DNA from: a virus
Direction: 5' to 3' (one strand)
IMG/VR virus record: IMGVR_UViG_3300027759_003534
Coordinates: 62,001-126,000 of that record
DNA: 64,000 bases
In this document: in pieces, positions 34,701 to 64,000 of the stretch
Numbering within the stretch: the first letter of the stretch is position 1
Layout of the letters: every line of letters begins with the position of its first letter
Notes under the pieces: generated by a model
What the model was told of the DNA's origin: nothing
The model's database searches: none
What the model saw: the letters and a program-made list of their open reading frames with translations, nothing else
Program-made: the position numbers and the translations under genes

Positions 34701-35195
34701 GTTACAGAGCCACAAGCTCCAACTATAGATGAGTTAAATACTGCTTACCAGGGCCTACAAAATTACAAAATGATATCTGACAACATGATTCTCAACACCG
34801 TAGACTTTCAACCGTTGTTCGGTCAAAAGGCAGAGCCAGCGTTAAGAGCCACAATTAAAGTCATCCGAGCATACGGTAGCACTGCTAGTGTTAGTACTAT
34901 TAAAAATTTAGTAGTGTCTAACATGAATGCGTATTTTAATCTTGACACTTGGAACTTTGGTGATACTTTCTATTTTAGTGAACTTGCAGCCTATATTCAT
35001 CAAAACATTGCTGACGTTGTTAGTAGTGTAGTTTTAGTTCCGCTAGACACACAAAAAAGCTTTGGTGACCTATATGAGATTAGGTCAGCACCTAACCAAA
35101 TTTTTGTTAACGGAGCCACAGTGAACGACGTGGAAGTTATCACTGCCTTGACCAGTACTAATCTACAGACTGCTCCAGGCAGTGGAGTAATTTGA
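31761..35195 (+). CDS. 6: Baseplate wedge protein gp6 (baseplate J family)
   Basis: A 1,144-residue protein, larger than T4 gp6 (660). The N-terminus is characteristic: YPETFNDYIESSEFIALLDV, then MAFMGQSLAFRTDLNTRENY and VKLANLVSYTPKRN. The middle has INFGDGIFATIPVGTFRTYV-like strands (QITLNFGDGIFATIPVG) as in the baseplate J fold, and the C-terminal half is enlarged. It forms the ring that links wedges. Its stop overlaps the ATG of the giant gp7-like gene (TGATG). Confidence 0.9.
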   Translation: MATTSRQTVIFGVEDWKRIFQTYREADFQSYDFETLRKSFVDYLRLYYPETFNDYIESSEFIALLDVMAFMGQSLAFRTDLNTRENYLDTAERRDSVVKLANLVSYTPKRNTEASGYLKVFSISTTENLTDYNGINLANLTVNWADPTNLDWQEQFITIINASLTNAQKFGNPGNRQTLLGVDTQEYTINLVPGFLPVIPYTATVDTVNMPFEVVNATSIGADFVYEPPPLPNGQFNVLFRNDQQGFLSNNTGFFFLFKQGVLQNQDFNLPERIDNRAVAINIEGINNTDIWLYQLDNLGNVAGFWERVQSVYAAAVEQLAPGTRDIYSVSSRTNDQITLNFGDGIFATIPVGTFRTYVRASNGLTYIINPVEMQSVSVPISYVSRTGQIETLTFTCGITEPVTNAQARETIQEIKQRAPAQYYTQNRMVNGEDYTNFPFTQYNSILKSSAINRASIGTSRYLDLVDGTGKYSSTNIFASDGALYESNNLYAFQFSWLTSNDISDAVVNQINPLALRAGLQQFYYANFPRPNLAVLNYTWHQSTSITNETTGYFENALGNPVSIGVFASNSGKYITEGSLVEFAAPTGYYFNASNQLVVGAPTQPDEKLTIWASPTAVYLAGTAQGLGNLPSGVGPVVLNNFVPTGAIPVQVIPVFTTDIPTSVQQTVVAQIALNQNFGLGYNNLTNTWYVITSSNLDVDANWSQSNAQSTAGTNSDASWLIQATYSGATYTVGSRSLEYYFGSVLQTRFFFYTSDPIYDSRTGTVIRDYINVLKVNSQPDSSAPMGADNVLTIIDQPVLSDGLVDDFQVVVSFDRSGGDLAPVNPDFFDEIVAPTIDPTQKLVFFQATVDFDNLQRYLLIEAGIVNSEYATLADIQVVQTQYVTGQVFYAYNPTSAATVNYNAGTFYILGVDSLGNPTLTVTYNYIARVGRQDLYFQYRHNSPLTSRIDPGSTNIIDVYVVTNAYYTAYINWLQDTTGTVTEPQAPTIDELNTAYQGLQNYKMISDNMILNTVDFQPLFGQKAEPALRATIKVIRAYGSTASVSTIKNLVVSNMNAYFNLDTWNFGDTFYFSELAAYIHQNIADVVSSVVLVPLDTQKSFGDLYEIRSAPNQIFVNGATVNDVEVITALTSTNLQTAPGSGVI

Positions 35196-50739: not shown

Positions 50740-52020
50740 ATGTCATATACAATTAACTTAACAGATGGTGCGTTATTTGCTACCATAGCAGATGGTACAA
50801 TCAATACCTCCAGCTCAATGACTTTGGTAGGTAAAAACTACGCCGGATACGGTCAGTTTTTGGATACTAACTTTATCCATCTGTTGGAAAATGCATCAAA
50901 TACTACAGCCCCGGGTGCACCGCTTACTGGTCAACTTTGGTGGGACTCCGGCAACGGCTTAATGAAGGTGTATACCGGTACTACATGGAAAACCATCAGT
51001 AGTGCTACTTCTAGTTCAACTGCTCCAAGTAATAATGTAACCGGTGACTTGTGGTACGACACAGTAAATCAACAGTTAAATGTATGGACTGGTACAGCAT
51101 GGTTATTGGTTGGTCCACAATTCACAGCCGGTCAAGGCACAACAGGGGCCATTGCAGCTACAATTACAGATAACACAAGTGTTACTCACACTGTTATTGA
51201 ATTATATGTAAACGATAGTATTGTGGGTATTGTAAGCAAGGACGCTACCTTTACTCCAGCTGTAGCAATTCCTGGATACACTACAGTTCGCCCTGGTATT
51301 ACTTTAGCTACAATAGTTGGCAGTCAAGTTCCATTGTTTCAAGGCACCTCTACTGATTCACTATCGTTGGGTGGAGTGCTTGCTACCTCGTTTATGCGCA
51401 CAGATGCCAACACCAGTACAAGTGGTACTTTATCGGTACTTAACAACACTGGCCTAGCAGTTGGCGCAAGCAGTAACTTTAGAGTTTCAGTATCTGGTAA
51501 TGATGTTACCCTAAGAAATCAAACATCAGGTGGCAATCTTTATTTAGGTGTCAACGTGGCAGGAAATGTCTCGCCAACCCTAACCATGTTTGGATCCAAT
51601 GGTGCCATCAGCGGTAATCAAATCAATGCCAACTATGCCGACGTTGCAGAACGCTTTGAAGCTGACGAAGTCATGCTTCCTGGCACTGTGGTTGAGCTTG
51701 GCGGCTCAGCAGAAATCACTCAAGTTTCAGCTGAATTAAGCGAAAAAGTGTTTGGAGTCATAAGTACACGAGCAGCATATTTGATGAACAGTTCAGCAGG
51801 CTCAGACGCTACACATCCCCCAGTTGCAATGACTGGACGAGTACCTGTTAATGTTGTTGGTTCAATTGCCCGAGGCGATAGATTGGTCAGTGCTGGCAAT
51901 GGTCTAGCGAGAGCTGCACAAGCAGGAGAAGCTACTGCGTTCAACGTAATTGGCCGTGCATTAAGAGATAAATTAGACACAGGCCCTGGCACTGTAGAAG
52001 CTATCGTAACAATTAAATAA
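50740..52020 (+). CDS. Tail fibre protein with peptidase_G2-like C-terminal chaperone
   Basis: A 426-residue protein. The N-terminus carries two W-x-D modules, TGQLWWDSGNGLMKVYTGTT and GDLWYDTVNQQLNVWTGTAW, that recur in phage fibres. The C-terminal 120 residues (YADVAERFEADEVMLPGTVV, then KVFGVISTRAAYLMN and RVPVNVVGSIARGDRLVSA) look like the peptidase_G2/intramolecular chaperone domain that helps fibre trimers fold and may be cleaved. It lies next to other fibre genes after the baseplate operon. Confidence 0.75.
   Translation: MSYTINLTDGALFATIADGTINTSSSMTLVGKNYAGYGQFLDTNFIHLLENASNTTAPGAPLTGQLWWDSGNGLMKVYTGTTWKTISSATSSSTAPSNNVTGDLWYDTVNQQLNVWTGTAWLLVGPQFTAGQGTTGAIAATITDNTSVTHTVIELYVNDSIVGIVSKDATFTPAVAIPGYTTVRPGITLATIVGSQVPLFQGTSTDSLSLGGVLATSFMRTDANTSTSGTLSVLNNTGLAVGASSNFRVSVSGNDVTLRNQTSGGNLYLGVNVAGNVSPTLTMFGSNGAISGNQINANYADVAERFEADEVMLPGTVVELGGSAEITQVSAELSEKVFGVISTRAAYLMNSSAGSDATHPPVAMTGRVPVNVVGSIARGDRLVSAGNGLARAAQAGEATAFNVIGRALRDKLDTGPGTVEAIVTIK
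52012..52019 (+). promoter_or_regulatory. Possible late promoter (ATTAAATA) for 52037
   Basis: TTAAATAAT overlaps the stop codon of the previous gene, 17 nt before the ATG at 52037, with AAGGA between. The overlap with coding sequence makes it less certain than the others. Confidence 0.4.
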
Positions 52021-52036: not shown

Positions 52037-53020
52037 ATGACTTATTCAGCAGGTGGACTAATACAAGCAACAGACTATAATGGGTTTGTTAGCACAACAT
52101 CGGGTGCAAACGTTAATGCAACGTGGAGCACTGGAACTACCAATGCTGGATGGGGTCAAACAGCACTAGGCACAGTAAGTGCTGGTGGCACGGTAACTGC
52201 AACACAATGGGCTAGTTTAGTCAACACCTTGTCAGCCATGGGCAGTCAAACCGGTACCTCAATTACCAGTAGAAGTGCACCAACTGCTGGTCAAACTATC
52301 AGCGTGTTGGCGGCTGTTAACACAGACTTGACAAACTGTTACACCAATCGTGGTAATGCTGCAGGATCTGGAACAGCATATGGCACGTTCTCAGGTACAA
52401 CAAGCAAAACTAGTGCCACAGGATCTGGTCAATCTGCCTGGACTATTACATTTACACACACTATCACATTCCCAAGTGCAGATCAAACCCGTTATTTCTT
52501 TAACGCTGGTGGCATTATAAAACTTCAGTACGGAAAATCAAGTACAGGCACCGACGTTGACCCAGACTGGAACACTCTTGCAGGATGGTGTGGAAGTATC
52601 AATATTACCGGCGGTGCGCAAACCATTGCCGGCCAAGCCTATACAGGAACTACCAGAATTGGCGGCACTGGCGGCACACAAACTACATTGGCCACTGGAA
52701 CAGGGTGGTATGCACTTACAGGCTCGCCCGCTACTATATTCCAACTAAATAATTCAGGTGGGCCTTACACAGGTGAGTATATTCGTACCACAGCCACAGC
52801 AACTTCAAGCACAGTTTTGACCTTGGTTACAACTTGGGTCAGTGACGGATCAACCGGTGCTGGTACTAGTGCTAATATTTCTGGTGGCACAGCCACTGCC
52901 AGCCCAAACACCACAATCACCGGTACAGCACCAACTACTTTGGTCACGTACCTTCCACCAAGCACAACTTATCTAACCGATTCGTGGGGAACCCCAACTA
53001 TTGCGGCTAGTGTAGCCTAA
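52037..53020 (+). CDS. Virion structural protein
   Basis: A 327-residue, Thr/Gly/Ser-rich protein with few charges, beginning MTYSAGGLIQATDYNGFVST. The phrase GWGQTALGTVSAGGTVTATQ, and repeated Y-F-F-N-A-G-G-x-I units, resemble virion proteins of T4-like marine phages with a similar start (Q-A-T-D-Y-N-x-F-V). AAGGA precedes the ATG and a terminator follows the stop. It ends the long plus-strand structural operon. Role not known; decoration or fibre-side protein is likely. Confidence 0.6.
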   Translation: MTYSAGGLIQATDYNGFVSTTSGANVNATWSTGTTNAGWGQTALGTVSAGGTVTATQWASLVNTLSAMGSQTGTSITSRSAPTAGQTISVLAAVNTDLTNCYTNRGNAAGSGTAYGTFSGTTSKTSATGSGQSAWTITFTHTITFPSADQTRYFFNAGGIIKLQYGKSSTGTDVDPDWNTLAGWCGSINITGGAQTIAGQAYTGTTRIGGTGGTQTTLATGTGWYALTGSPATIFQLNNSGGPYTGEYIRTTATATSSTVLTLVTTWVSDGSTGAGTSANISGGTATASPNTTITGTAPTTLVTYLPPSTTYLTDSWGTPTIAASVA

Positions 53021-53091: not shown

Positions 53092-53397
53092 ATGAATACT
53101 GACGAACTTGTTGCCTACGCTCGTGCCCGTTTTGACCATGCAACCGCGCGACGCACACTTAAAGAAAAATATCAAGCCAAACTAACAGTTGCCCATGCTG
53201 GCGGAATGTGGTTAGCTGGTCCAGAATTATTGGCTGTATTGGCCGCTTGTGCAGGCCCATCAGCAGTTGTCCTTGACTTATATGACACGCCAGTGAAAGT
53301 AGTGCCTAACGAGTTTCAAGATTTAGTGCGTACTCACTGGCAAGAACAAATGAACGCTTGGCTTGTAGAATACGAAGAGCTTAATCAAAATAGATGA
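53092..53397 (+). CDS. Conserved small phage protein heading the accessory operon
   Basis: A 101-residue protein: ARARFDHATARRTLKEKYQA, then LTVAHAGGMWLAGPELLAVL. The L-K-E-K-Y-x-A and H-A-G-G-x-W phrases occur in a small conserved family of T4-like phage proteins. A TAAATG sequence ends one base before the ATG and no Shine-Dalgarno is seen; TACAAT just upstream is another possible -10 box. Function unknown. Its stop overlaps the next ATG. Confidence 0.7.
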   Translation: MNTDELVAYARARFDHATARRTLKEKYQAKLTVAHAGGMWLAGPELLAVLAACAGPSAVVLDLYDTPVKVVPNEFQDLVRTHWQEQMNAWLVEYEELNQNR

Positions 53398-54149
53398 CAA
53401 CAGGTGCATTAATATTTGCCCGCAATAATGAGCAGATTAACTATGAGGCAATGGCTCACTGGTCGGCTAAGAATATTGAACGACATCTTGGTATCCCAAC
53501 ACACATTGTAACCGATGATTCTGCACCATCTACCAACACAAGACACTTTACAGATGTTGGCCCAGTTACATGGCACAATCTCAATCGCATGGATGCTTAT
53601 CAACTGAGTCCGTGGGATTGCACTCTAGTGCTAGATGCAGACTATGTTGTGGCTAGCGATCAGTTACAATCTGTGCTAGACATAGACCAAGATTTTTTAG
53701 CACATCGCTGGGCGTACGATATTACCGGCAACAACAACTTTGAAGGGCTTAATTACTTTGGAAACAATCGTATGCCCATGTGGTGGGCAACTGTAATGAT
53801 GTTTCGTCGCAGTCGACACGCAGAATTAATTTTTGACTCAATGCAGATGATCCGAGACAACTGGACTCATTATAGGAATTTGTATAAAAATACAAATGCA
53901 ACTTATCGTAACGACCATGCGCTTAGTATTGCCCTAGGCATAGTTAACGGGCATACATTAGATCATGCTGGTATTCCTTGGGCATTGGCCAGTTTAACAC
54001 CTGATCATAAATTAACACAGCTAGATCAAGACAGTTACAGAGTAGATTTTGTAAACACAGAAAATAACCTACGCTGGATAACATTAACACAAGACTTCCA
54101 CGCTATGGGCAAACAACAACTAGGAGAGATCGTTGCCAATCACTGCTGA
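53394..54149 (+). CDS. Glycosyltransferase-like protein (GT-A, GT8-like)
   Basis: A 251-residue protein. The nucleotide-sugar region has LVLDADYVV (DxD at about residue 80) after LNRMDAYQLSPWDCT, and a start (TGALIFARNNEQINYEAMAH) like the first Rossmann strand and helix of GT-A enzymes. MPMWWATVMMFRRS and NDHALSIALGIVNGH follow. These are features of GT8-type transferases. It is coupled to the previous gene by ATGA. Donor and acceptor are unknown. Confidence 0.65.
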   Translation: MTTGALIFARNNEQINYEAMAHWSAKNIERHLGIPTHIVTDDSAPSTNTRHFTDVGPVTWHNLNRMDAYQLSPWDCTLVLDADYVVASDQLQSVLDIDQDFLAHRWAYDITGNNNFEGLNYFGNNRMPMWWATVMMFRRSRHAELIFDSMQMIRDNWTHYRNLYKNTNATYRNDHALSIALGIVNGHTLDHAGIPWALASLTPDHKLTQLDQDSYRVDFVNTENNLRWITLTQDFHAMGKQQLGEIVANHC

Positions 54150-54858
54150 ACGCGGTTACTTAATACCTGCAATTGGTGATGTATATGTAGGTTGCGCCAA
54201 CCGGTTAGCAGACAGCATACACCGCTTCCACCCCAACGCCAACGTAACTATTCTTACCAAGGACATGTTGCCCTATGGTGATCAAGGTGGTTACGCCAAC
54301 GACTGGCAAGTGTTTGTTGCTAGTCCCTACAGGCAAACTATTAAACTAGAAGCTGACATGATTTGTGCTAGCCCTATAGATCATTGGTGGCCGCTGTTTG
54401 AACGGCGTGATGTTGTTATTAGCCAAGGTGCTAGAACGTTTTATGATCAACCCGCGGTGTCACGCTACTACAGAAAAATATTTGATGCTAACAAGTTACC
54501 AGACGTTTACAATGCTATTACTTATTGGAGATTAAGTAACACAGCCAAAGAGTTTTTTAATTTAGTTAGACAAATATTTGAACAATGGGATAGCTATAAA
54601 CGAGTATTAAAGTTTCCAGATGATATGCCAACTACTGATGTAGTCTATGCTATTGCGGCAGTTATTATAGGTCCAGAAAACATTACATTGCCTTCTGGTC
54701 TAGGACCAACCATAGTACATATGAAACGCTACATTAACCCTACACAAAGTAACAATTGGACAAGAGAATTAGTCTGGGAAAACAATCCGTTTCGTATTAA
54801 TACAGTAGCACAGTGGGGATTGGTGCATTATCATATCAAGGAGTGGGCAAATGAGTAA
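54133..54858 (+). CDS. Glycosyltransferase-like protein with TTG start
   Basis: A 241-residue protein with the DxD-like motif IKLEADMICASPIDHWWPLF at about residue 70-90 and NAITYWRLSNTAKEFF further on. The start is TTG at 54133, supported by AGGAG 7 nt before it; no ATG stands near. It overlaps the previous gene by 17 bases. It resembles the neighbour in fold, so the two may add successive sugars. Confidence 0.65.
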   Translation: MPITAERGYLIPAIGDVYVGCANRLADSIHRFHPNANVTILTKDMLPYGDQGGYANDWQVFVASPYRQTIKLEADMICASPIDHWWPLFERRDVVISQGARTFYDQPAVSRYYRKIFDANKLPDVYNAITYWRLSNTAKEFFNLVRQIFEQWDSYKRVLKFPDDMPTTDVVYAIAAVIIGPENITLPSGLGPTIVHMKRYINPTQSNNWTRELVWENNPFRINTVAQWGLVHYHIKEWANE

Positions 54859-55114
54859 AGACGAAGATAAATTTAAACACAGTAAAAGGCTACATAAAGA
54901 CCAGGCCACCATTGAGAAACAATTAAAGATTGCTAAAAGCCATGGCATGACTAATAAGGTTGTTGAAGAGCCACACCGTTTGGCCAAACATCATGCAATG
55001 GATTGTGGCGTTCCTCATTGTCCTATGTGTTCGAATCCAAGGCACAATAAAACAGTTAAAGATCATTTGACTATCCAAGAAAAACGCAATCTTCAAAAGG
55101 CCAAAGATGAGTGA
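54851..55114 (+). CDS. Small CxxC protein, conserved in phages
   Basis: An 87-residue, basic protein with DCGVPHCPMCSNPRHNK near residues 51-67. The C-x5-C-x2-C-x-N-P-R pattern is a small metal-binding knuckle known from many phage proteins of unknown function. Its start overlaps the previous stop region by 8 bases. Confidence 0.7.
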   Translation: MSKDEDKFKHSKRLHKDQATIEKQLKIAKSHGMTNKVVEEPHRLAKHHAMDCGVPHCPMCSNPRHNKTVKDHLTIQEKRNLQKAKDE

Positions 55115-55457
55115 TATGACTGAAGAAGAGTTTTGGTTGATCTTACATGCAACACCACAAACTAAGCAAGTATTTTATAGATTATATTACAACAAGGACG
55201 GCTCGCCTATTATCTACAGCATGGAGGACTTGCTAGGTAATTACATAGAAGTTGATCAATCGACATACGTGTTAGCGCCGTTTAATGTTAAGGTAATTGA
55301 CGGTAAACTTGTTTATATTAACCCAACGATTACTGTTAAAAAATTACAACCCACAAACTCAACCGGCACCGCATGCGACCCCCAAGATGTGTGCATAGTA
55401 GTCGATACAGATCAACCACATACAAAATGGAATATAGTAAACAATGAACTCAATTGA
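55107..55457 (+). CDS. Hypothetical protein
   Basis: A 116-residue acidic protein: FWLILHATPQTKQVFYRLYY, then SPIIYSMEDLLGNYIEVDQS and TACDPQDVCIVVDTDQPHTK. No family is recognised. It overlaps both neighbours by a few bases and so belongs to the operon. The short strands and two Cys near the C-terminus suggest a small beta domain. Confidence 0.65.
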   Translation: MSDMTEEEFWLILHATPQTKQVFYRLYYNKDGSPIIYSMEDLLGNYIEVDQSTYVLAPFNVKVIDGKLVYINPTITVKKLQPTNSTGTACDPQDVCIVVDTDQPHTKWNIVNNELN

Positions 55458-56361
55458 TATAGCAGATTTAGACTGTGTATTTTTAACCTATGATGAACCC
55501 AACAAAGAAGAAACATGGGTTAAAATTAAGAATATGGTTCCTTGGGCCCGCCGTGTAGATGGAGTTAAGGGCAGTGATGCTGCACACAAGGCAGCCGCTG
55601 ATGCTAGTACTACAGATCGATTTGTGTTAATTGACGGAGACAATATTCCCGACGCTAAGTTTTTTAATCTTACCTTAGACACAAACGAGGTTTGTGTGTA
55701 TCGTTGGAGAGCCCGTAATCACATCAATGGGTTGATGTACGGTAATGGAGGCCTAAGCATATGGTCTAAGGAATTTGTATATGCTATGCGTACACACGAA
55801 GCAAGTGATGGCACTACCGAAAACGATGTAGAGTTTTGTTTTTATTCCAACTACTATGCTATGCACGATTGCTATAGTACAACATATCCAAACGGATCGG
55901 CCTTCCAGGCATGGAGGGCTGGCTTCCGCGAAGGTGTTAAGATGTGCTTAAACAAAGGTGCACGTCCTACCTTACAAGAATTTAAACAACGAGTACACCA
56001 ACGCAACTTAGATCATCTTACTATCTGGCACAACGTAGGGCGCGATGCGGATAACGGTATCTGGGCCATAGCCGGAAGTCGCATGGGCACATACATGACT
56101 ATGATTACTCCTCAGTGGGACTATCGTGCTGTACAAGATTTTATAGAGTTAGAAAAGTTATGGGACACAGTAAAGGATGACAATCCTGAAATGTTAGCAG
56201 GCCACGTAGGCGAGCCATTAGTAGAACAGCTAGATTTACCTATCAACATGATTGGCTCAGCCGAAAGCAAATTCTTTAAGCATCACTACCGCAGTAACTG
56301 GCACAACCAAGGAATAATGGTTAAAGAAATTGATGTAATAAGAAATCAGGAAGGCTGGTAA
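55444..56361 (+). CDS. Glycosyltransferase-like phage protein (IDGDN motif)
   Basis: A 305-residue protein: LDCVFLTYDEPNKEETWVKI, then VPWARRVDGVKGSDAAHKAA and FVLIDGDNIPDAKFF (D-G-D at about residue 65). The L-T-Y-D-E-P start and the G-D-N aspartates are conserved in a family of phage proteins with a GT-A-like core. It is likely to be a sugar transferase or sugar-nucleotide binder; the assignment is tentative. Confidence 0.6.
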   Translation: MNSIDIADLDCVFLTYDEPNKEETWVKIKNMVPWARRVDGVKGSDAAHKAAADASTTDRFVLIDGDNIPDAKFFNLTLDTNEVCVYRWRARNHINGLMYGNGGLSIWSKEFVYAMRTHEASDGTTENDVEFCFYSNYYAMHDCYSTTYPNGSAFQAWRAGFREGVKMCLNKGARPTLQEFKQRVHQRNLDHLTIWHNVGRDADNGIWAIAGSRMGTYMTMITPQWDYRAVQDFIELEKLWDTVKDDNPEMLAGHVGEPLVEQLDLPINMIGSAESKFFKHHYRSNWHNQGIMVKEIDVIRNQEGW

Positions 56362-57062
56362 TGATTATTGCTTTTTATCCTGGCGCTGGCGGAAACAGGT
56401 ATTTACGCATGTTAAAAGAATTAAAATGGACTGACTCAAACACATCATATGATCGATTGGTTAGCGGTCAAGAATTCAAACACAGATATTTAACTGACGA
56501 TGTCAGCAACGGTGCTCAAGATTTTATCTTAACACATTGTTTAAATGAGCCACATATACGTTCAAAATTTCCTAACCACAACATTGTTTTTATACTTGGC
56601 AATTTTAAAAAATGTCTACAACGTGAGTGGATATTAGCTGGACATGAGAGATACATTCAAAAAAACATACAACATACCTATGACTATGATAGGATAGAGC
56701 ACTATAACGCATTTAAAGATAATTCGTGGCCAGCCTGTTTTACTATTAATGATATAGAAAATTTGCCAGTTTCTATTCTTAACGAGATTACTCAAGAGTT
56801 TAAAAAAATACAAAAAAGACAAAATGCCACTAACATGCTAGCTGACCTTGAAAACCGTATAATTGGTAAAGTGAACTCTGCATATGAAATTATATGTTGG
56901 CATAAAAATTATTATGATCAATATCCTTTGTTAATTTCAAATGAGTCTACAGTAATTGATATTAATTGTGATGAGGATATTTTTTCAAAAACAATGCAAA
57001 AAGAATTAGACTTCTACAACAGCGAAATATTTGATGAAGTGTGGAAGGAATTAAATGTCTAA
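56361..57062 (+). CDS. Sulfotransferase-like or P-loop protein (tentative)
   Basis: A 233-residue AT-rich gene product that begins MIIAFYPGAGGNRYLRML, a loop that resembles the PAPS-binding P-loop of sulfotransferases. LTHCLNEPHIRSKFPNHNIV and LGNFKKCLQREWILAGHERY follow. The second PAPS motif is not clear. Its base composition differs from the neighbours. It shares one base with the previous stop (TAATG). Confidence 0.45.
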   Translation: MIIAFYPGAGGNRYLRMLKELKWTDSNTSYDRLVSGQEFKHRYLTDDVSNGAQDFILTHCLNEPHIRSKFPNHNIVFILGNFKKCLQREWILAGHERYIQKNIQHTYDYDRIEHYNAFKDNSWPACFTINDIENLPVSILNEITQEFKKIQKRQNATNMLADLENRIIGKVNSAYEIICWHKNYYDQYPLLISNESTVIDINCDEDIFSKTMQKELDFYNSEIFDEVWKELNV

Positions 57063-58086
57063 AGTAAACGCATTCAATGGGTTTGATAAGTTAACAGAAG
57101 TATGGTTAGGCGATGTTTATCCAACGGATTTTTATCAAGATTTTGATTCAGAAGTTCGAGATGCCTTTGAACAAATTACCGCGATGACTATTGAAGATCT
57201 TTCCAAGATACAAACAGTTTTAGAATCAAAAAATGTTAAGGTACAACGTCCTCAATTTAGTTCAAATCTTGAAAATTATCTCAACGATTCTGGAACTTTA
57301 ATAAAACCTCCAATAATGCCTAGAGACACTGAATTATCCTTGGGTAATACGTTCTATCATTTAAGATCTGATTACAAAATAGATCCTTGGCAAAAACAAA
57401 TTGATGCTATGCTAGACAATGGAGTAGACATAAAAGTTGGACCATCCGGAAATGATTTATCTTGTATACAGCCACCTAGTATAGTTCGTTGCGGCAATGA
57501 TCTTTATGTTGACATTGATTCGCATAAGCATGTGATGCCTCAAATCGCGTTAACTTTAATAGAATGGTCGAAACAGTATAGGGTTCACTTGATTTCTACA
57601 GGTGGACATAGCGATGGTGTATTCTGTCCAATTCGTGAAGGATTACTTATTACCACTCACTGGATAGACGATTACAAAAAAACATTTCCGGGATGGGAAG
57701 TATTTAAAATACCCCGGGAGCTTACTGGTATTGCTGGATCTTTACAGAATTGGTGGGTTCCGGAGATACAAATTTCGTCAAACAGTTTATTTGCAAAACA
57801 TATAGAAGAAAGAGCAATAGATTGGGTTGGAAATTATCAAGAAACGCAATTTAGTGTCAACATGCTGGTTGTTGATCATAATACAGTGATTGCCGTAAAT
57901 CAAAATCCTGTGTTGACTGAATTTTTAACCAAAAAAGGAATAGAAGTAATTATTGTTGATTTTAGATGTAAAGAATTTTGGGATGGTGGTATGCATTGCC
58001 TAACGTGTGATACTCAACGCAATGGCTTGATTAAAAATTATTTTCCAGAGCGCCCAGTTGCAAACTATTTAGATTGGATAAAATGA
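57055..58086 (+). CDS. Amidinotransferase / arginine-deiminase-superfamily enzyme
   Basis: A 343-residue pentein-fold enzyme. The start KLTEVWLGDVYPTDFY resembles glycine and inosamine-phosphate amidinotransferases (GATM, StrB1). IKPPIMPRDTELSLGNTFYH lies near residues 83-102, the catalytic His in STGGHSDGVFCP (His185) and the catalytic Cys in DGGMHCLTCDTQRNG (Cys315). It would move an amidino group from arginine to an amine, or hydrolyse a guanidine. It lies directly before the radical SAM group and shares an ATGA overlap with it, so it is probably part of the same pathway. The substrate is unknown. Confidence 0.75.
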   Translation: MSKVNAFNGFDKLTEVWLGDVYPTDFYQDFDSEVRDAFEQITAMTIEDLSKIQTVLESKNVKVQRPQFSSNLENYLNDSGTLIKPPIMPRDTELSLGNTFYHLRSDYKIDPWQKQIDAMLDNGVDIKVGPSGNDLSCIQPPSIVRCGNDLYVDIDSHKHVMPQIALTLIEWSKQYRVHLISTGGHSDGVFCPIREGLLITTHWIDDYKKTFPGWEVFKIPRELTGIAGSLQNWWVPEIQISSNSLFAKHIEERAIDWVGNYQETQFSVNMLVVDHNTVIAVNQNPVLTEFLTKKGIEVIIVDFRCKEFWDGGMHCLTCDTQRNGLIKNYFPERPVANYLDWIK

Positions 58087-59495
58087 ACAACAAAGGCGAC
58101 GAAAGTGTAAACAATAAAAGCAAGTTTCTCAGCGGTGCCGAGGAAATGCAAAATCTGCTTGGCCCAGCACTTTGTCTGGCCAAATGGAAACAGGTTAGTT
58201 TACATTTACCCACGGGCCTTAACAACAGTTGTTATCATCCTCCACTACACCCTATTCCCGCTGAGTTGTTGACTGATAATCCTGGTGCGCTACACAATAC
58301 TCCACACAAAAAAGAACAGCGCAAGATCATGTTACGGCAAGAACGCCCTAGCGAATGTAGTTATTGCTGGGCTATGGAGGACAATGACAAGTTAAGTGAT
58401 CGTCATTATCGCAGTGGTGAGCCATGGGCTGCCAAATACTTTGATATTATAACCAATTCAAATGGAGATGAAGATGTCATACCTAGTTATGTGGAAGTTA
58501 ACTTTAATCATGCTTGTAATTTGGCATGTAGTTACTGTAGTCCTCAATTTAGTTCAACTTGGCAACAAGAAATGGATCAGCATGGCGCTTACCCTACTAG
58601 CACTAGACACAACGATCCTAGTCATTTTGTTGGTCGCAATCGGCCTATCCCAGTTCGCGAGCATAATCCCTATGTAGAAGCTTTTTGGGCCTGGTGGCCT
58701 ACGCTTTATCCAGAACTAGAGCACTTTCGTATGACCGGTGGTGAGCCCATGTTGGACAAGAACACGTATAGAGTGTTTGATTATGTATTAGCCAACCCTA
58801 AACCCAACTTGCATTTAAACGTAACCAGTAATTTCAGTGTAGATGAAAAGACTTGGCAAAAGTATAAGGGATATGTAAAAGAATTATGCAAAGGTGAGCG
58901 GATTGAACACTTTATGCAGTTTGTTAGTCTGGACAGCTTCGGTGATCAAGCAGAATATATTAGACACGGCTTGGACTTTGATCTGCTGTGGGATCGTGTA
59001 AATCAATTCTTAACAGAGATACCTGGACGTAATTCAATTACCTTTATTGTGACTATGAATAATCTTAGTGTAACAGGATTACCGCACCTGTTTGCTGGCA
59101 TACTAGGCCTGCGTAAGTTATACAGCAAGACATATCAGCGTGTGTGGTTTGACACACCTGTGCTCAGACAACCCACATGGCAAAGCCTACAACTGCTACC
59201 AGAATCGTATGTGGATCAACTTGAACAACTTTGGGCTTGGATGATTCGTCAAATTGAAACAGAAGAAACTCGTTTCCACGGATTTAAAGACTACGAGATT
59301 GCTCGCTTGGACAGAGATATTGCCTGGATGCGTGATGGACAAAAGTTGGATCCTGCTGTGATCAATTGTAATAAAGCAGACTTCTATAGATTCTTTGCAG
59401 AAGCTGATCGCAGACACAGTACAAACTTCTTAAAAACTTTTCCAGAAATGACAGCTTGGTGGAAAGAATGCAAATATTATGCTAAACAATCATAA
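58083..59495 (+). CDS. Radical SAM protein with N-terminal twitch domain (1 of 4)
   Basis: A 470-residue protein from ATG 58083 (a TTG at 58074 is an unlikely start). An N-terminal Cys region (LNNSCYHPP about 50, ECSYCWAMEDN about 95) precedes the core motif CNLACSYC (about residues 145-152), then FRMTGGEPMLD. The extra cysteines before the core fit the class named twitch-domain radical SAM, which binds an auxiliary iron-sulfur cluster. Its start overlaps the amidinotransferase stop (ATGA), so it is translated with it. Confidence 0.85.
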   Translation: MNNKGDESVNNKSKFLSGAEEMQNLLGPALCLAKWKQVSLHLPTGLNNSCYHPPLHPIPAELLTDNPGALHNTPHKKEQRKIMLRQERPSECSYCWAMEDNDKLSDRHYRSGEPWAAKYFDIITNSNGDEDVIPSYVEVNFNHACNLACSYCSPQFSSTWQQEMDQHGAYPTSTRHNDPSHFVGRNRPIPVREHNPYVEAFWAWWPTLYPELEHFRMTGGEPMLDKNTYRVFDYVLANPKPNLHLNVTSNFSVDEKTWQKYKGYVKELCKGERIEHFMQFVSLDSFGDQAEYIRHGLDFDLLWDRVNQFLTEIPGRNSITFIVTMNNLSVTGLPHLFAGILGLRKLYSKTYQRVWFDTPVLRQPTWQSLQLLPESYVDQLEQLWAWMIRQIETEETRFHGFKDYEIARLDRDIAWMRDGQKLDPAVINCNKADFYRFFAEADRRHSTNFLKTFPEMTAWWKECKYYAKQS

Positions 59496-60618
59496 AATTG
59501 TATTAAACAATTTTTGTGAAATTGATCGTCTTATCCGCCCATTTGCCGATGACGAGTTTTACGATTTAACCAAGCACACTATAGTACCAGGCGCCATATA
59601 CATAATTGGCCGAGAGCAATTTACAACTAACCGACAGCTTATTAAACAATTAGTTGATAGCGGTACTATACGAGCAGTATTATGTAATCCTGCCGAGGGG
59701 TCTGAGTCAATGTATTGGTTATATCAGACATTAGGAATAGGCAATTTTACCAAACATGCCGCTGTTATCACTGGCGGATATTTGCCCGATGGTATTCCGC
59801 ATATGTACCATGAACATTTTCTACCGTTGATATTAGATTACGATGAAAACATAAAAGCTATAGAAGATTATAAAAACAGAAAAACAACCGACCGCCCTTA
59901 CAAATTTTTATTTTTAAATGGTAGATTGCGTGTACACCGAAAATATCTATTAGAATATTTTAGATTAACTGGGTTGTTAGACCAAAGTCTCTGGACAAAT
60001 CTAGACCATAGAAATAGTCAGCCACCAAAACTAAAATTAGAACATAACGGACAAGATCTTATCAATAGTCCATTTCCTGTACACTATCTACCAGCCCAAT
60101 ATGAGATCGACCGTTATCAACAACAAGCAGTTAAAGTGCCAACAGAGTTATCGGGCGACCTGGCTGCCAAACGATATTTGTTTAACAACGAATGGGGCGA
60201 CATTTATATTGCACCCGCGCCTTACCTAGACACTTATTTTAGTTTAGTAACCGAAACAGTATTTGATTATCCGTATACATTTAGAACAGAAAAAATTTGG
60301 AAACCTATAGCAATTGGACATCCGTGGATTGCCGCTACTAACCGTGGCTATTATAGAGATATGCACAACCTAGGATTTAAAACTTTTGGACACCTAATTG
60401 ACGAAAGTTTTGATCAAATAGAAAATGGTCAAGATAGAATTGAGCGTATAACTCAAGTAGTGGAGGATCTTTGCCGGCAGGACCTTCCAGCTTTCTTAAC
60501 AGCAGCCAAAGATGTGTGTAAATACAATCAACAATTGCTTGCGGAGTTAAGGATTAAAGTCCGCAGTGAGTTTCCTGATCGTTTCCACCAATTTATTAAT
60601 CAACAATTCAATGCATGA
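59479..60618 (+). CDS. Conserved phage protein, possibly fucosyltransferase-like
   Basis: A 379-residue protein. The best landmark is FRTEKIWKPIAIGHPWIAAT (about residue 268-287); the T-E-K-x-W-x-x-x-x-x-G-x-P phrase is close to the donor-site motif of GT10-type fucosyltransferases. KFLFLNGRLRVHRKYLLEYF (about 137) and HLIDESFDQIENGQDR are also conserved in a family of phage proteins. It lies between two radical SAM genes with overlaps on both sides. The sugar-transfer assignment is tentative. Confidence 0.5.
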   Translation: MLNNHKIVLNNFCEIDRLIRPFADDEFYDLTKHTIVPGAIYIIGREQFTTNRQLIKQLVDSGTIRAVLCNPAEGSESMYWLYQTLGIGNFTKHAAVITGGYLPDGIPHMYHEHFLPLILDYDENIKAIEDYKNRKTTDRPYKFLFLNGRLRVHRKYLLEYFRLTGLLDQSLWTNLDHRNSQPPKLKLEHNGQDLINSPFPVHYLPAQYEIDRYQQQAVKVPTELSGDLAAKRYLFNNEWGDIYIAPAPYLDTYFSLVTETVFDYPYTFRTEKIWKPIAIGHPWIAATNRGYYRDMHNLGFKTFGHLIDESFDQIENGQDRIERITQVVEDLCRQDLPAFLTAAKDVCKYNQQLLAELRIKVRSEFPDRFHQFINQQFNA

Positions 60619-61942
60619 TTTAGAATTCAAACAACAAGTGTTAGACACAAAGAGTGCCAGCTTTTGTGCAGCCAAGTGGTATAATGCTACTATATGGTTA
60701 GGTTCAGGACAGACTACAAGTTGTCATCACCCACCCGCACACAAGATTGATCTAGAAGAATTAAAAACAAATCCAAAGGCATTACACAACACGGTAGAAA
60801 AGAAAATAGATCGATTGAACATGCAGTTGGGCAATCGTCCTAAGGGGTGTGAATATTGCTGGAAGATTGAAGACATGGGCCGCGATAGTATTAGCGACCG
60901 TGTATATAAAAGTAAAATTTACCCTATAAAGGCCCTAGATGAAGCATATCAAACTCCGCATCAAGCAGATGTCAATTTACGTACACTGGAAATTGCGTTC
61001 GATCGCACTTGCCAATTTGCTTGTAGCTATTGTAACCCTGCTTTCAGTAGCACATGGGTTAAAGACATACGATCCAACGGTCCCTATGAGTCCTTGGTGT
61101 CTGATGGGCGTAACCACTTTACTCACGATCACCCTAGCAGTCAACTATACCGCGTTGGCGAAACTAATCCCTATGTTGAAGCGTTCTTTGCTTGGTGGGA
61201 AACGGATCTTCACCGGACTCTTCAAGAGCTGAGGATCACTGGTGGTGAACCCTTAATGAGTGGCGAAACCTGGAAGCTGTTGGATTGGTTTAAAACCAAT
61301 AAAGGTAAAAGCTCAACTCGGTTGGCCATCAACAGTAACTTGGGTGCAAAAGTGGATTTAGATCGTTTGCTAGACAGCATAGAAGGATTAGAAGTAGATA
61401 TCTATACTAGTCAAGAAAGCGTATACAATCAAGCTGAATACATTCGAGATGGATTAGATTATGATGCTTGGATATCCAATGTTCAAAAGTTACTAGACAG
61501 CGACTGTGTAAGAGCTGTACATTGCATGGCTACTATCAACGCATTATGCTTAGATAGTTTGACTAGCTTGCTGTATCAATTGCTAGAATTTAAACAAATG
61601 TACGGGCGTGAGCGAGTGAGTTTTACACTGAACATTTTGCGTTTTCCTAGTTTTCAAAGTCCATTGGTATTGCCTGACGACTTGCGCACACACTATAAAG
61701 ATCGATTACAAGACTTCCTGGATCGCAATCGCAACAATAAATTCATACACGAGCACGAGCTCAATCACATACAACGGTTGATTGATTATCTAGATGTGGT
61801 TAAGACCCCGCATTCGGATTCATTTGATATGCCTAAATTGTTAAATGATTTTAAACAGTTTCATACTCAATACGATCAGCGTCGTAACAAAAATTTTACC
61901 GCAACATTTCCTCAATTGGCAGACTGGTATAACACATTATGA
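60611..61942 (+). CDS. Radical SAM protein with N-terminal twitch domain (2 of 4)
   Basis: A 443-residue paralogue of the gene at 58083. FCAAKWYNATIWLGSGQTTS, CHHPPAHKID and GCEYCWKIEDMG parallel the first protein, and the core is CQFACSYC (about 133-140) with LRITGGEPLMSGE. The ATG at 60611 is preferred to a GTG start at 60566. It overlaps both neighbours (8 bases upstream, ATGA downstream). Confidence 0.85.
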   Translation: MHDLEFKQQVLDTKSASFCAAKWYNATIWLGSGQTTSCHHPPAHKIDLEELKTNPKALHNTVEKKIDRLNMQLGNRPKGCEYCWKIEDMGRDSISDRVYKSKIYPIKALDEAYQTPHQADVNLRTLEIAFDRTCQFACSYCNPAFSSTWVKDIRSNGPYESLVSDGRNHFTHDHPSSQLYRVGETNPYVEAFFAWWETDLHRTLQELRITGGEPLMSGETWKLLDWFKTNKGKSSTRLAINSNLGAKVDLDRLLDSIEGLEVDIYTSQESVYNQAEYIRDGLDYDAWISNVQKLLDSDCVRAVHCMATINALCLDSLTSLLYQLLEFKQMYGRERVSFTLNILRFPSFQSPLVLPDDLRTHYKDRLQDFLDRNRNNKFIHEHELNHIQRLIDYLDVVKTPHSDSFDMPKLLNDFKQFHTQYDQRRNKNFTATFPQLADWYNTL

Positions 61943-63630
61943 ATTTAGATGATAAAATTATTGAACTTAAAACAGCGTACAACGTAATTGACGTGGTAAA
62001 TTTGGACCAGTGGAGTAACAGTATTAATGAAGGCAAAAACTGGCTCGAGCACACCTGTCGCCGTCTGCACAAGGATCCGTACAAAAACAATGAGCGTATT
62101 GTTTTTACACACTCGGCAGATTTTTACACAGAAGATGATTTAACAACAGCTGGGATTATACTTAGAAACTTACAAGTTATTTTAAATTCAGTTGATATAT
62201 CAAACTTTTTTGTTATTGTTGTATCAACCAATAACAATATAGCAGAAGAGTGGAACATTATAAATGAACTAAGCAAAGACCCGGTGCCATTGGCAGTTGA
62301 AATTGTCGATGGAAAATTTACTCAAAACATTATAAAAGATTATTCAAAACGCCAGGAAACTTATAAATATGGGTCAGTCGATCCTGTAAAAATACGATTA
62401 GACGAGCTTACAACTCAAGAAAAATTTTTACTTACAGAAAGTAAAACCTTCTGTATCTACCCCTGGATACATCTACATGCTTATCCAACTGGGGAGGCAT
62501 ATCCTTGTTGTCATGCTGAAATGGCGTATCCGGTAGGCAATACAAAATTTAAAACCCTTGAAGAAATATATCGTGATGCGCCCATGCGTGAGCTAAGAAA
62601 GGACATGCTGGCCGAGCAACCAAACCCTGCATGCGGTCGTTGTTACGAGCAGGAGGAAGCAGGTTTCTTCAGCGGTCGCCGGAGTGCCAACAAGCACCAT
62701 GGACACCATGTCAAACGTATCGATGATGATCAGTTTCAAATGAGCTACTGGGATATTCGTTTCAGTAACTTATGCAACCTAAGTTGCCGTAGTTGTGGGC
62801 ATATATTCAGCTCTAGCTGGTATCAAGATCAGGCCAAGTTGGCTGGTGGTGATTGGAAAGATCGCAACCAAGTGTTAAACTATGCAGGCCGTACAGAGAC
62901 AGACATGTGGGAACAGTTGATTCCGCATCTGGACTATGTAGAGCAAATTTACTTTGCTGGCGGCGAACCCTTAATGATGAAGGAACACTACAACATTTTA
63001 GATGAACTGGAACGTCGTGGGCGGTTTGATGTCAGACTGATATATAATACTAACTTTACACATGTCAAGCTGAAGGATCGCACAGTATTTGATTATTGGA
63101 AACGCTTTAAAAGTGTAGCGGTAGGAGCCAGTTTAGATGCTATGGGCCCACGTGCAGAGTATATACGAAAAGGCACTGAATGGGACCAAGTAGAACGCAA
63201 TCGTGCGCAAATGCTAGAAATATGCCCCAATATAGACTTTTATATAAGCCCTACACTAAGCATAATGAATGCACTACACCTACCAGAGTTTCACCGCAAC
63301 TGGGTTGACAAAGGATTTATTAAACCGCAAGACTTGAATGTGAATATTTTGCAAGACCCAACGCATTTCAGAATAGACATAGCACCTGTTGAATATAAGC
63401 AACGTATACAAGTAGCATACGAAGAACACTTGGAATGGTTGCGCCCATTGGATTCACTACAGCGAGCAACTGTGGGGTTTGAGAGTGCTATCAACTTTTT
63501 GATGTCCACAGACAATTCTGCATTGTTACCTAAATTTTGGTCGGCGTCTGACAAATTAGATCACATTCGATCCGAAAGTTTATTAGACGTAGTTCCGGAA
63601 TTGACATTAATCGAACAATATAGACAATAA
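61939..63630 (+). CDS. Radical SAM protein with N-terminal twitch/SPASM-like domain (3 of 4)
   Basis: A 563-residue protein. The first 165 residues are an added domain without a recognised family. Then FCIYPWIHLHAYPTGEAYPC (about 170) and NPACGRCYEQEEAGFF form the auxiliary-cluster region; the core motif is CNLSCRSC (about 279-286) with IYFAGGEPLMMKEHY. The aux region before the core is the opposite of the usual SPASM order. Coupled by ATGA to the preceding gene. Confidence 0.85.
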   Translation: MNLDDKIIELKTAYNVIDVVNLDQWSNSINEGKNWLEHTCRRLHKDPYKNNERIVFTHSADFYTEDDLTTAGIILRNLQVILNSVDISNFFVIVVSTNNNIAEEWNIINELSKDPVPLAVEIVDGKFTQNIIKDYSKRQETYKYGSVDPVKIRLDELTTQEKFLLTESKTFCIYPWIHLHAYPTGEAYPCCHAEMAYPVGNTKFKTLEEIYRDAPMRELRKDMLAEQPNPACGRCYEQEEAGFFSGRRSANKHHGHHVKRIDDDQFQMSYWDIRFSNLCNLSCRSCGHIFSSSWYQDQAKLAGGDWKDRNQVLNYAGRTETDMWEQLIPHLDYVEQIYFAGGEPLMMKEHYNILDELERRGRFDVRLIYNTNFTHVKLKDRTVFDYWKRFKSVAVGASLDAMGPRAEYIRKGTEWDQVERNRAQMLEICPNIDFYISPTLSIMNALHLPEFHRNWVDKGFIKPQDLNVNILQDPTHFRIDIAPVEYKQRIQVAYEEHLEWLRPLDSLQRATVGFESAINFLMSTDNSALLPKFWSASDKLDHIRSESLLDVVPELTLIEQYRQ

Positions 63631-63632
63631 TC

Positions 63633-64000
63633 ATGACTGATAAAATTATAGGCAAATACAACTGGCAAGATCGAATTCCCAGTTACATTCCGTTAGAACA
63701 GCTAACCGACATTCAACGGCATAGACTAATGGAAAGTAAAACTTTTTGCATGTTACCTTGGATACACTTACATGCATGGCCCGATGGCCGCGCTTATCCG
63801 TGTTGTTTAGGCAATGCTCGACATCCTGTGGGTAACTTTAAAGAAAAATCCATGAAGGAAATTTGGAACGACGACGCCATGCGGCAAATGCGAGTCAACA
63901 TGCTCAATGATCAGCCTTGCAAGGAATGTAGTGACTGCTACGAGCAAGAAGAGTACGGCTTCGCTAGTATGCGCAACAACAGCAACAAAAACTTTGGACA
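63633..64000 (+). CDS. Radical SAM protein with N-terminal twitch domain, partial (4 of 4)
   Basis: Open from ATG 63633 to the window end (122 residues seen). It matches the previous gene without its added N-terminal domain: FCMLPWIHLHAWPDGRAYPC (Cys39, Cys57-58), GNFKEKSMKEIWNDDAMRQM and CKECSDCYEQEEYGF. The radical SAM core would lie beyond the window. Two bases separate it from the previous stop. Confidence 0.75.
   Translation, partial: MTDKIIGKYNWQDRIPSYIPLEQLTDIQRHRLMESKTFCMLPWIHLHAWPDGRAYPCCLGNARHPVGNFKEKSMKEIWNDDAMRQMRVNMLNDQPCKECSDCYEQEEYGFASMRNNSNKNFG

What the first reader, a model, noticed from the sequence alone, without database searches (positions are those of the whole stretch)
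57055..64000. Amidinotransferase plus four N-twitch radical SAM genes in one phage operon
A pentein-fold amidinotransferase (His185, Cys315) is joined by ATGA overlap to the first of four radical SAM paralogues, all with the cysteine-rich domain before the CxxxCxxC core where that core is in the window. GT-like and sulfotransferase-like genes share the same operon (53092-64000). Known amidinotransferases make guanidino groups on amines such as inosamine phosphate; radical SAM enzymes with auxiliary clusters oxidise or cross-link peptides and sugars. Together they resemble a pathway that makes or attaches an unusual guanidino-sugar or modified peptide, perhaps to alter the host surface, the virion or the DNA. 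I know of no described phage system with this make-up. No short precursor-peptide gene was found in the window.
Basis: partly seen in the sequence, partly recalled or inferred. Interest (0 to 1): 0.8.

Follow-up and report, generated by a model that had tools for sequence, protein, structure and literature searches.

The report
Phage amino-sugar glycan cassette, radical SAM-rich
A family of large, uncultured viruses of bacteria carries next to its tail-fibre genes a conserved gene cassette (five or six radical SAM enzymes, a carbamoyl-transferase, an amidinotransferase-like enzyme and probable sugar-attaching enzymes) that may build an unusual decorated sugar; pieces of this make-up were already known in other phages, but what it does has not been shown.

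Summary
The genes are real. The window ends inside a tight 19-gene run (genome 115092-133489) with six tandem N-twitch radical SAM genes, not four; the phage has 11 over the NF033640 cut-off and two amidinotransferase-like genes (AMTs). The AMT of the finding (AMT1) sits in a variable slot: it is absent there in 13 of 13 readable relatives. The second, AMT2 (outside the window), is the conserved one: in 66 of 66 viral loci with enough flank it lies near a NodU/TobZ-type carbamoyltransferase and two or more N-twitch radical SAM genes, and in 72 of 72 near a GT-B-like gene or its homologue. In two phages an AMT1-like gene overlaps a sugar dehydratase/epimerase and a DegT aminotransferase. Best reading: an O-antigen-like sugar pathway in the tail-fibre region of T4-like phages. 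Against it: in 34 of 79 more distant loci AMTs keep other company. 'No described phage system' is wrong in part: Campylobacter phages CP220/CPt10 (2010) carry an AMT with five radical SAM genes, and a T4-like genome with 12 radical SAM genes is published. The conserved combination was not found in print. Substrate and target are unknown.

The parts
50740..52020 (+). g105, tail-fibre-like protein upstream (by eye); possible acceptor (inference)
   Evidence: ORF; upstream neighbour also in relatives
52037..53020 (+). g106, tail-fibre-like protein upstream (by eye); possible acceptor (inference)
   Evidence: ORF; upstream neighbour also in relatives
53092..53397 (+). g107, 101 aa, unknown; first gene of the run
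   Evidence: ORF; orthologues in relatives
53394..54149 (+). g108, GT-A-like (LDADYV motif by eye)
   Evidence: ORF; in relatives; no Pfam match, no PHROG: assignment is inference
54133..54858 (+). g109, GT-A-like (by eye)
   Evidence: PHROG 1903, function unknown, E 1e-9; in relatives
54851..55114 (+). g110, small cysteine-containing protein, seen in few relatives
55107..55457 (+). g111, small protein, in relatives
55444..56361 (+). g112, GT-A-like (LIDGDN motif by eye), conserved
   Evidence: no Pfam match over cut-off, no PHROG, no PDB relative
56361..57062 (+). g113, 'sulfotransferase-like' in the finding; unverified; in the variable slot
   Evidence: no family match over a cut-off; no orthologue in the slot of 13 relatives
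57055..58086 (+). AMT1 (g114), pentein of the AGAT/StrB1 branch; in the variable slot
58083..59495 (+). g115, N-twitch radical SAM (NF033640, 303 bits); ATGA overlap with AMT1
59479..60618 (+). g116, remote homologue of the GT-B-like g128
   Evidence: no family; aligns with g128 at 18% identity with the shared TEK..K..P motif; sits inside the array
60566..61942 (+). g117, N-twitch radical SAM (NF033640, 294 bits)
61939..63630 (+). g118, N-twitch radical SAM with N-terminal extension (390 bits), closest paralogue of g119
63633..64000 (+). g119, N-twitch radical SAM, cut by the window end (full gene genome 125633-126961, 406 bits)

Best explanation
A glycan-biosynthesis cassette in the tail-fibre (host-recognition) region of a lineage of large T4-like phages. 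DegT-type aminotransferases put an amine on a keto-deoxy sugar nucleotide; the amidinotransferase-like enzyme moves an amidino group from arginine to that amine, giving a guanidino sugar; GT-type enzymes assemble the chain; the NodU/TobZ-type enzyme O-carbamoylates it; the five conserved N-twitch radical SAM enzymes do oxygen-independent C-H chemistry (epimerisation, dehydrogenation or dehydration) on the sugars or on the acceptor. The product probably decorates tail fibres or other virion proteins, or the infected cell's surface. AMT1, inserted in a variable slot in this phage, would add a second guanidinylation. Shown here: gene content, order, conservation within the lineage and catalytic cysteines. 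Inferred: the sugar substrate, the order of steps, every enzyme's reaction and the target.
For: Conservation: of the 66 AMT2 loci with at least 7.5 kb on that side, 66 have the carbamoyltransferase and 66 at least two N-twitch radical SAM genes; 72 of 72 with at least 3 kb on the other side have g128 (69) or g127 (58); 60 of 62 with 7 kb have the DegT gene. 15 of 15 radical-SAM-seeded loci carry 5-6 N-twitch radical SAM genes in the same order where visible, with some insertions. AMT1-like genes (44-46%) lie between, and overlap as called, a dehydratase/epimerase-type and a DegT gene in two phages, L076 and L112. Carbamoyltransferase: PF02543 and PF16861; solved relatives include novobiocin carbamoyltransferase, GdmN and TobZ. 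g128 model: GT-B, Z 11.3 to T4 beta-glucosyltransferase, 10.6 to a fucosyltransferase. The same genome has a dTDP-glucose-4,6-dehydratase-like gene (302 bits, under the 365-bit cut-off) and an RfbH-type gene over its cut-off (435 against 423), a UDP-sugar dehydrogenase, cytidylyltransferase and GT8 genes and a GT2 gene. Orthologues of six array genes keep CxxxCxxC in 160 of 160 distinct sequences; the four auxiliary cysteines are 98-100% conserved in the five genes aligned. In a cyanophage the AMT lies next to KdsA and near KdsB, but also next to 2OG-Fe(II) oxygenase genes. The radical SAM profile weakly matches enzymes that act on sugars (BlsE 1e-7, BtrN 7e-4).
Against: In the wider viral AMT family (79 loci) only 11 have an N-twitch-like radical SAM gene in the fetched flank and none was counted with a carbamoyltransferase (many of these loci are short). 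The commonest AMT neighbours there are relatives of g84 (34 of 79 within four genes) and of the arginyl-tRNA-transferase-like g85 (19 of 79), beside what look by eye like glutaredoxin and ribonucleotide reductase genes. One relative (L042) keeps the array and carbamoyltransferase but has no AMT2, g127 or g128 at that place. g108, g109 and g112 have no family evidence for being glycosyltransferases, and Foldseek finds no match at E 0.001 for the g128 model. The best solved relative of the radical SAM profile is an enzyme whose title states no function (8vpo, 6e-14), then viperin (2e-8). The AGAT triad acid is missing, so even the AMT reaction is not certain. The conservation counts come from one lineage and show retention, not independent linkage.
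Confidence: 0.5

Rival explanations
1. The AMTs belong to a different small-molecule or amino-acid-transfer pathway, with the ATE-like g85 and the unknown g84, and their place beside the radical SAM array is incidental.
For: g84-family genes near the AMT in 34 of 79, g85-family in 19 and g86-family in 16 of the wider AMT loci (35, 19 and 16 over the whole fetched loci); g85 matches ATE_C over its Pfam cut-off (27.1 against 25 bits); L188 has g84-g85-AMT-g86; our phage keeps g84-g85-g86 at window 15020-16549 without an AMT; in 2 of the 18 large relatives with a g85 match (G014, G018) an AMT lies next to it.
Against: In the lineage AMT2 lies in the radical SAM/carbamoyltransferase cassette in 66 of 66 loci with enough flank and overlaps g127 in our phage; AMT1-like genes sit in a sugar-type operon in L076 and L112. 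In the other 16 large relatives with a g85 match no AMT was listed next to it.
Confidence: 0.2
2. Virion-protein or peptide modification: the radical SAM enzymes modify tail-fibre proteins or a hidden peptide (RiPP-like), and the AMT converts lysine or ornithine side chains.
For: SPASM/twitch radical SAM enzymes often act on peptides (recalled); weak matches to peptide-maturase models; the run lies directly behind tail-fibre-like genes.
Against: No room for a separate precursor gene in the run (largest gap 94 bases), though the small proteins g107, g110 and g111 are not excluded; no peptide-maturase model near its cut-off; does not explain the DegT and dehydratase-type genes.
Confidence: 0.15
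3. DNA hypermodification: the cassette decorates phage DNA, as T4 glucosyltransferases do.
For: The g128 model superposes best on T4 DNA beta- and alpha-glucosyltransferases; some neighbours in the wider AMT family look like dNTP-synthesis genes (by eye).
Against: Among the 57 of 206 ORFs put to family libraries none matched a base-hydroxymethylating enzyme or DNA-base kinase; the other 149 were not tested. The GT-B superposition is a shared fold only; the fucosyltransferase is within 1 Z of the T4 enzymes.
Confidence: 0.08
4. Auxiliary metabolism: the radical SAM and AMT genes boost host metabolism at low oxygen, as proposed for CP220/CPt10.
For: Proposal in PMC2853527 (passages).
Against: The genes keep company with tail-fibre-like, carbamoyltransferase and sugar-type genes, not with a recognisable host pathway among the genes tested.
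Confidence: 0.05

Closest known systems
CP220/CPt10 module of Campylobacter phages (PMC2853527, passages; record FN667789)
   Same: Putative glycine amidinotransferase among radical SAM genes (five per cluster in the paper); in CPt10 the AMT gene overlaps the next radical SAM gene; AMT is a remote homologue of AMT1 (24% identity); function unknown
   Different: Of the six radical SAM genes annotated in the 41 kb seen, three match our N-twitch profile at 18-28 bits and the others not at E 1e-4; no carbamoyltransferase or DegT gene annotated there. CP220 itself not looked at
Host recognition cluster of pelagimyophages and cyanomyophages (PMC7029224, passages)
   Same: T4-like phages, variable region with tail fibres, glycosyltransferases and radical SAM gene cassettes
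   Different: No AMT-carbamoyltransferase-array unit in the passages seen; the freshwater pelagimyophages are said to lack LPS and radical SAM genes
T4-like marine genome TARA_ERS488813_N000010 (PMC5332604, passages)
   Same: 183 kb, 12 radical SAM genes in one phage
   Different: Interpreted there as Fe-S metabolism; its gene order was not examined here
Viral amidinotransferases already named in databases
   Same: A0A6J5LX73 'Inosamine-phosphate amidinotransferase 1' of an uncultured Caudovirales phage, 37% identity, and Campylobacter phage CP20 'Glycine amidinotransferase', structure matches to AMT1; S-SCSM2R 'glycine amidinotransferase'
   Different: S-SCSM2R context has 2OG-Fe(II) oxygenases and KdsA/KdsB, a single radical SAM gene 19 kb away in the stretch seen; contexts of the others not examined except CPt10
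AGAT, StrB1, SxtG, HsvA amidinotransferases
   Same: Pentein fold; Cys, His and the positions of AGAT Asp170 and Asp305
   Different: No conserved acid at the AGAT Asp254 position; Trp233, Glu263 and Asp310 invariant in the 50 viral rows
NodU/TobZ O-carbamoyltransferases
   Same: Both Pfam domains; PDB homologues down to 2e-49
   Different: Far below the NodU equivalog cut-off (129 against 1000 bits)

Membership tests
AGAT/StrB1-type amidinotransferase | Pentein fold closer to amidinotransferases than to deiminases | tested here: met
   Z 28.8 SxtG, 28.7 AGAT, 28.5 StrB1, 28.1 HsvA (rmsd 2.9-3.8, 285-292 aligned); best deiminase 23.1
AGAT/StrB1-type amidinotransferase | Nucleophilic Cys, catalytic His, and the two substrate Asp (AGAT 407, 303, 170, 305; roles recalled) | tested here: met
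   C315, H185, D91, D187; C, H and D187 in 50 of 50, D91 in 49 of 50 rows (rows chosen with motif-based patterns)
AGAT/StrB1-type amidinotransferase | Acid pairing with the His (AGAT Asp254; role recalled) | tested here: not met
   Gln139 in AMT1, Ser in AMT2, Asp in 8 of 50 rows. Sequence alignment only; invariant Glu263 could stand in. So filed as amidinotransferase-like, not as a proven member
AGAT/StrB1-type amidinotransferase | Transfers amidine from arginine to an amine | not testable with these tools
   needs an enzyme assay
N-twitch radical SAM proteins (NF033640) | Score over the curated cut-off of 170 bits | tested here: met
   six of six tandem genes, 274-406 bits; 11 in the genome
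N-twitch radical SAM proteins (NF033640) | CxxxCxxC core and four N-terminal cysteines | tested here: met
   11 of 11 own genes
NodU/TobZ carbamoyltransferase | N- and C-terminal carbamoyltransferase domains | tested here: met
   PF02543 9e-38, PF16861 1e-47
GT-B glycosyltransferase (g128; g127 and g116 as remote homologues) | GT-B fold | tested here: inconclusive
   g128 model Z 11.3, rmsd 4.9, 280 aligned to T4 BGT; Foldseek best E 2e-3; no sequence match in PDB. g127 and g116 not modelled
CP220/CPt10 radical SAM-amidinotransferase module | AMT embedded among radical SAM genes | tested here: met
   AMT1 next to the array in our phage; CPt10 gene table
CP220/CPt10 radical SAM-amidinotransferase module | Same radical SAM family | tested here: not met
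   three CPt10 genes at 18-28 bits with our profile, the rest not at E 1e-4
RiPP cluster | Precursor peptide gene | tested here: inconclusive
   no gap over 94 bases in the 19-gene run, but ORFs of 87-116 aa (g107, g110, g111) are not excluded as substrates
Viperin-type anti-phage radical SAM (PADLOC pVip) | Viperin family identity | tested here: not met
   four array proteins tried, 18-33 bits in PADLOC; six under 33 bits against the NCBIfam cut-off of 180

The most novel reading that the evidence does not exclude
A lineage of large T4-like phages carries a largely self-encoded route to a guanidino- and carbamoyl-decorated amino-deoxy-sugar glycan, built with an array of five oxygen-independent radical SAM enzymes, and mounts it on its own adhesins: antibiotic-like sugar chemistry used as a virion glycan code.
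Probability: 0.25. Interest if true: 0.8.

Novelty: new variant of a known kind. Interest (0 to 1): 0.55.

Why it matters
Phages with ten or more radical SAM genes have been noted since 2010, and the papers seen propose host metabolism or Fe-S metabolism without a test. The unit found here (AMT2, GT-B-like gene, carbamoyltransferase, several N-twitch radical SAM genes, in 66 of 66 loci with enough flank) narrows the question to one testable pathway: guanidino and carbamoyl groups can be looked for by mass spectrometry. If right, it would reveal O-antigen- or aminoglycoside-like sugar chemistry in virions or infected cells and give five new radical SAM reactions.

Tried and rejected
'Four radical SAM genes': corrected to six in tandem and 11 over the cut-off. 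'AMT1-radical SAM linkage is conserved': rejected; slot read in 13 relatives (L029 and L030 do not show it; L037, L038 and L043 have the same coordinates and look like the same phage) with AMT1 in none. 'Nothing like it in print': rejected. The statement that the AMT-carbamoyltransferase-array combination was not found in print rests (held open-access library; listings, and passages of eight papers). Viperin-type defence: rejected. Bacterial origin of the AMT: the one genome-contig scan gave 2 loci, both from MAGs; the bacterial spread of the radical SAM family was not surveyed. Profile searches of g122 and g112 in the PDB gave nothing usable; g122 stays unknown though seen in 57 of 66 loci. 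PMC12619734 (passages) describes another aquatic large-phage lineage; 'amidino' and 'carbamoyl' do not occur in it. PMC8226683 (passage) lists a glycine amidinotransferase in a table of a lake-virus study. PMC11360552 (passages) discusses viral guanidinoacetate methyltransferase. PMC12398825 (passage) counts five radical SAM proteins in CC_R7.

Weak points of my own counts: the DegT model failed to build, so that call says nothing on DegT; its carbamoyltransferase model came from one sequence. One search counts include two MAG loci; one search is the clean count over the 80 viral loci, limited to those with enough flank. A first version of that count missed overlapping genes and gave 57 of 66 for the carbamoyltransferase. 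The 20 large relatives were picked by me from loci already found by AMT2 or g119, so they are not a random sample. 57 of 206 ORFs of the genome were put to family libraries. With looser E-values NF033640 also gives sub-cut-off matches in 14 of 14 control genomes. The habitat of the relatives was not shown by any search.

Full report
WHAT IS THERE. The window is positions 62001-126000 of a 182,566-base virus record; genome coordinates below minus 62000 give window coordinates. The record is a T4-like phage: its major capsid protein is 62-66% identical to those of the listed best hits, jumbo phages such as PA5oct, CBB and Vibrio phage 2.275.O, and it has T4-type terminase and baseplate domains. 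Behind tail-fibre-like genes (g104-g106, by eye) runs a string of 19 genes, 115092-133489, that overlap or nearly touch; the largest gap is 94 bases. It holds GT-like genes g108, g109 and g112 (assigned by eye), AMT1 (g114, 119055-120086), radical SAM genes g115, g117, g118, g119, g120 and g121, a remote homologue (g116) of the GT-B-like g128, the unknown g122, a carbamoyltransferase (g123, 130573-132045) and two unknowns. On the other strand follow AMT2 (g126, 133494-134528), g127 and the GT-B-like g128; then g129 (+), and on the minus strand a DegT aminotransferase (g130), a dehydratase/epimerase-type gene (g131) and a further radical SAM gene (g133).

THE RADICAL SAM GENES. All six in the array exceed the NF033640 cut-off (274-406 bits against 170); in the record 11 do, one further match contains two stops (9706-10593), and two more are weak. 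In 11 of 11 the three core cysteines and four N-terminal cysteines are invariant. Orthologues of g115, g117, g118, g119, g120 and g121 keep CxxxCxxC in 9 of 9, 15 of 15, 7 of 7, 17 of 17, 49 of 49 and 63 of 63 distinct sequences. At E 1e-30 the family was found in 20 of 20 large relatives (chosen because they carry the cassette; 2-16 matches each) and in 0 of 14 control bacterial and archaeal genomes; at looser E the 14 controls give matches, none over the cut-off. So these are catalytically plausible enzymes of a family abundant in these viruses; its spread in bacteria was not surveyed.

THE AMIDINOTRANSFERASES. The two are related to each other (E 1e-37). Neither AMT1 nor AMT2 has a Pfam or NCBIfam family over a cut-off. 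A profile of viral AMTs finds AGAT, SxtG, HsvA and StrB1 in the PDB; the AMT1 model (mean pLDDT 87) superposes on the same four at Z 28-29, on deiminases at 23.1 or less. Cys315 aligns with the residue that is Ala in AGAT entry 4jdw. The AGAT Asp254 column is not conserved (Asp in 8 of 50); Glu263 is invariant in those 50 rows. I therefore say 'amidinotransferase-like', with the reaction unproven.

CONSERVATION. Seeded with g119, 15 viral loci were found; all have 5-6 N-twitch radical SAM genes, in the same order where visible, with insertions in some. AMT1 and g113 occupy a variable slot between g112 and g115: AMT1 is there in 0 of 13 relatives in which the slot can be read; a near-identical contig (L023, 100%) has it. 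Seeded with an AMT profile, 589 stretches encode relatives, of which the 80 best were kept, 78-100% identical to AMT2. Of the 66 with at least 7.5 kb on the array side, 66 have the carbamoyltransferase, 66 at least two N-twitch radical SAM genes and 66 g121; 70 of 70 with 2.6 kb have the carbamoyltransferase; 72 of 72 with 3 kb on the other side have g128 (69) or g127 (58); 60 of 62 with 7 kb have DegT and 35 of 62 g131. The 80 loci form 60 clusters at 98% AMT identity and belong to one lineage, so the counts show retention under divergence, not repeated independent assembly. AMT2 overlaps g127 by 8 bases, and L042 lacks AMT2, g127 and g128 together at this place while keeping the array: AMT2 looks tied more closely to the g127/g128 pair than to the radical SAM genes. 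In the annotated phage collection AMT2 has 3 matching records, all under 60% identity, so no close cultured relative is in it.

WHY SUGAR. (a) In L076 and L112 an AMT1-like gene lies between, and overlaps on both sides as called, a dehydratase/epimerase-type and a DegT gene. (b) The own genome carries a fuller sugar-nucleotide set: a dTDP-glucose-4,6-dehydratase-like protein (302 bits, under the 365-bit cut-off), an RfbH-type protein over its cut-off (435 against 423 bits), a DegT protein nearest to PseC but far under its cut-off, a UDP-sugar dehydrogenase and a methyltransferase, GT8 and a cytidylyltransferase/mannose-phosphate-isomerase-like fusion and a GT2. (c) O-carbamoyltransferases of this type act on sugars and antibiotics (recalled; nearest solved relatives). 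(d) g128 models as GT-B. (e) In a cyanophage the AMT is beside KdsA and near KdsB. None of this shows the substrate.

AGAINST. In 79 more distant AMT loci only 11 have an N-twitch-like radical SAM gene within the fetched flank (many loci are short). There the steady neighbours are relatives of our g84 (34 loci), g85 (19) and g86 (16) (35, 19 and 16). g85 is related to arginyl-tRNA-protein transferase C-termini, over the Pfam cut-off; g84 has only sub-cut-off matches (DUF6875; a relative of it DUF1415). Our phage keeps g84-g86 at window 15020-16549 without an AMT, and 2 of 18 large relatives with a g85 match still have an AMT next to it. An older, different AMT pathway is therefore a serious rival, and AMT2 may have been recruited from it. 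The g128 model has no Foldseek match at E 0.001.

KNOWN OR NEW. Campylobacter phages CP220 and CPt10 have clusters with five radical SAM genes and a putative glycine amidinotransferase each (PMC2853527, passages; CPt10 gene table). Radical SAM cassettes with glycosyltransferases in the host recognition cluster (PMC7029224, passages) and a T4-like genome with 12 radical SAM genes (PMC5332604, passages) are published; viral amidinotransferases are already named in databases. Nine searches of the held library did not show the conserved AMT2-GT-carbamoyltransferase-radical-SAM unit. I rate it a new variant of a known kind.

VERDICT. Observation confirmed; interpretation partly supported, with the conserved partner being AMT2 rather than AMT1. 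Glycan pathway 0.5; other AMT pathway 0.2; peptide or protein 0.15; DNA 0.08; metabolism 0.05.

Noticed in passing
window 15020-16549: g84 (unknown; sub-cut-off DUF6875 match), g85 (ATE_C-like, arginyl-tRNA-transferase C-terminus) and g86 (DUF6614): their relatives are common neighbours of viral amidinotransferases elsewhere, but here no AMT lies with them.
   Followed up: partly
genome 173780-178721 (L019, L013): Sugar-nucleotide genes: RfbH-type gene over its NCBIfam cut-off, 4,6-dehydratase-like gene, epimerase-type gene, i.e. a possible 3,6-dideoxyhexose route in a phage.
   Followed up: partly
genome 155516-156535 (L018:5519-6535, minus): TctC-type periplasmic solute-binding protein (E 1e-57) in a phage; such proteins are very numerous in Betaproteobacteria (recalled), a weak hint at the host.
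   Followed up: no
genome 9706-10593 (L012, minus): A further N-twitch radical SAM match with two stop codons inside.
   Followed up: no
L027:11998-13293: Amidinotransferase-like protein of marine virus AG-345-D19 that by eye lacks the cysteine of the C-terminal motif, perhaps a non-catalytic paralogue.
   Followed up: no
G011 (346,856-base record, locus L094): 16 N-twitch radical SAM matches at E 1e-30 or better in one phage record, the most of the 20 searched.
   Followed up: no
genome 136988-139393 (L010:2988-5393): g129, 801 aa, has four imperfect repeats in its N-terminal half and a C-terminal part resembling g112 (both by eye); found in 72 of the 82 loci.
   Followed up: no
window 35192-49939: One ORF of 4915 codons before the tail-fibre-like genes; perhaps the counterpart of VrlC of pelagimyophages; identity not tested.
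   Followed up: no
genome 161151-162206 (L011:7151-8206): A different radical SAM protein with a C-terminal SPASM-like stretch, distantly like the tungsten-cofactor oxidoreductase maturase model (45 bits against a cut-off of 380).
   Followed up: no
L205 (Vibrio phage K566): Three radical SAM genes within four genes, one matching g119 at 25% identity; no amidinotransferase annotated in the 25 kb seen.
   Followed up: partly
G001-G020: Many of the 20 large relatives carry further AMT-like matches besides AMT2, among them a short, distant one of about 310-325 aa in several records.
   Followed up: no
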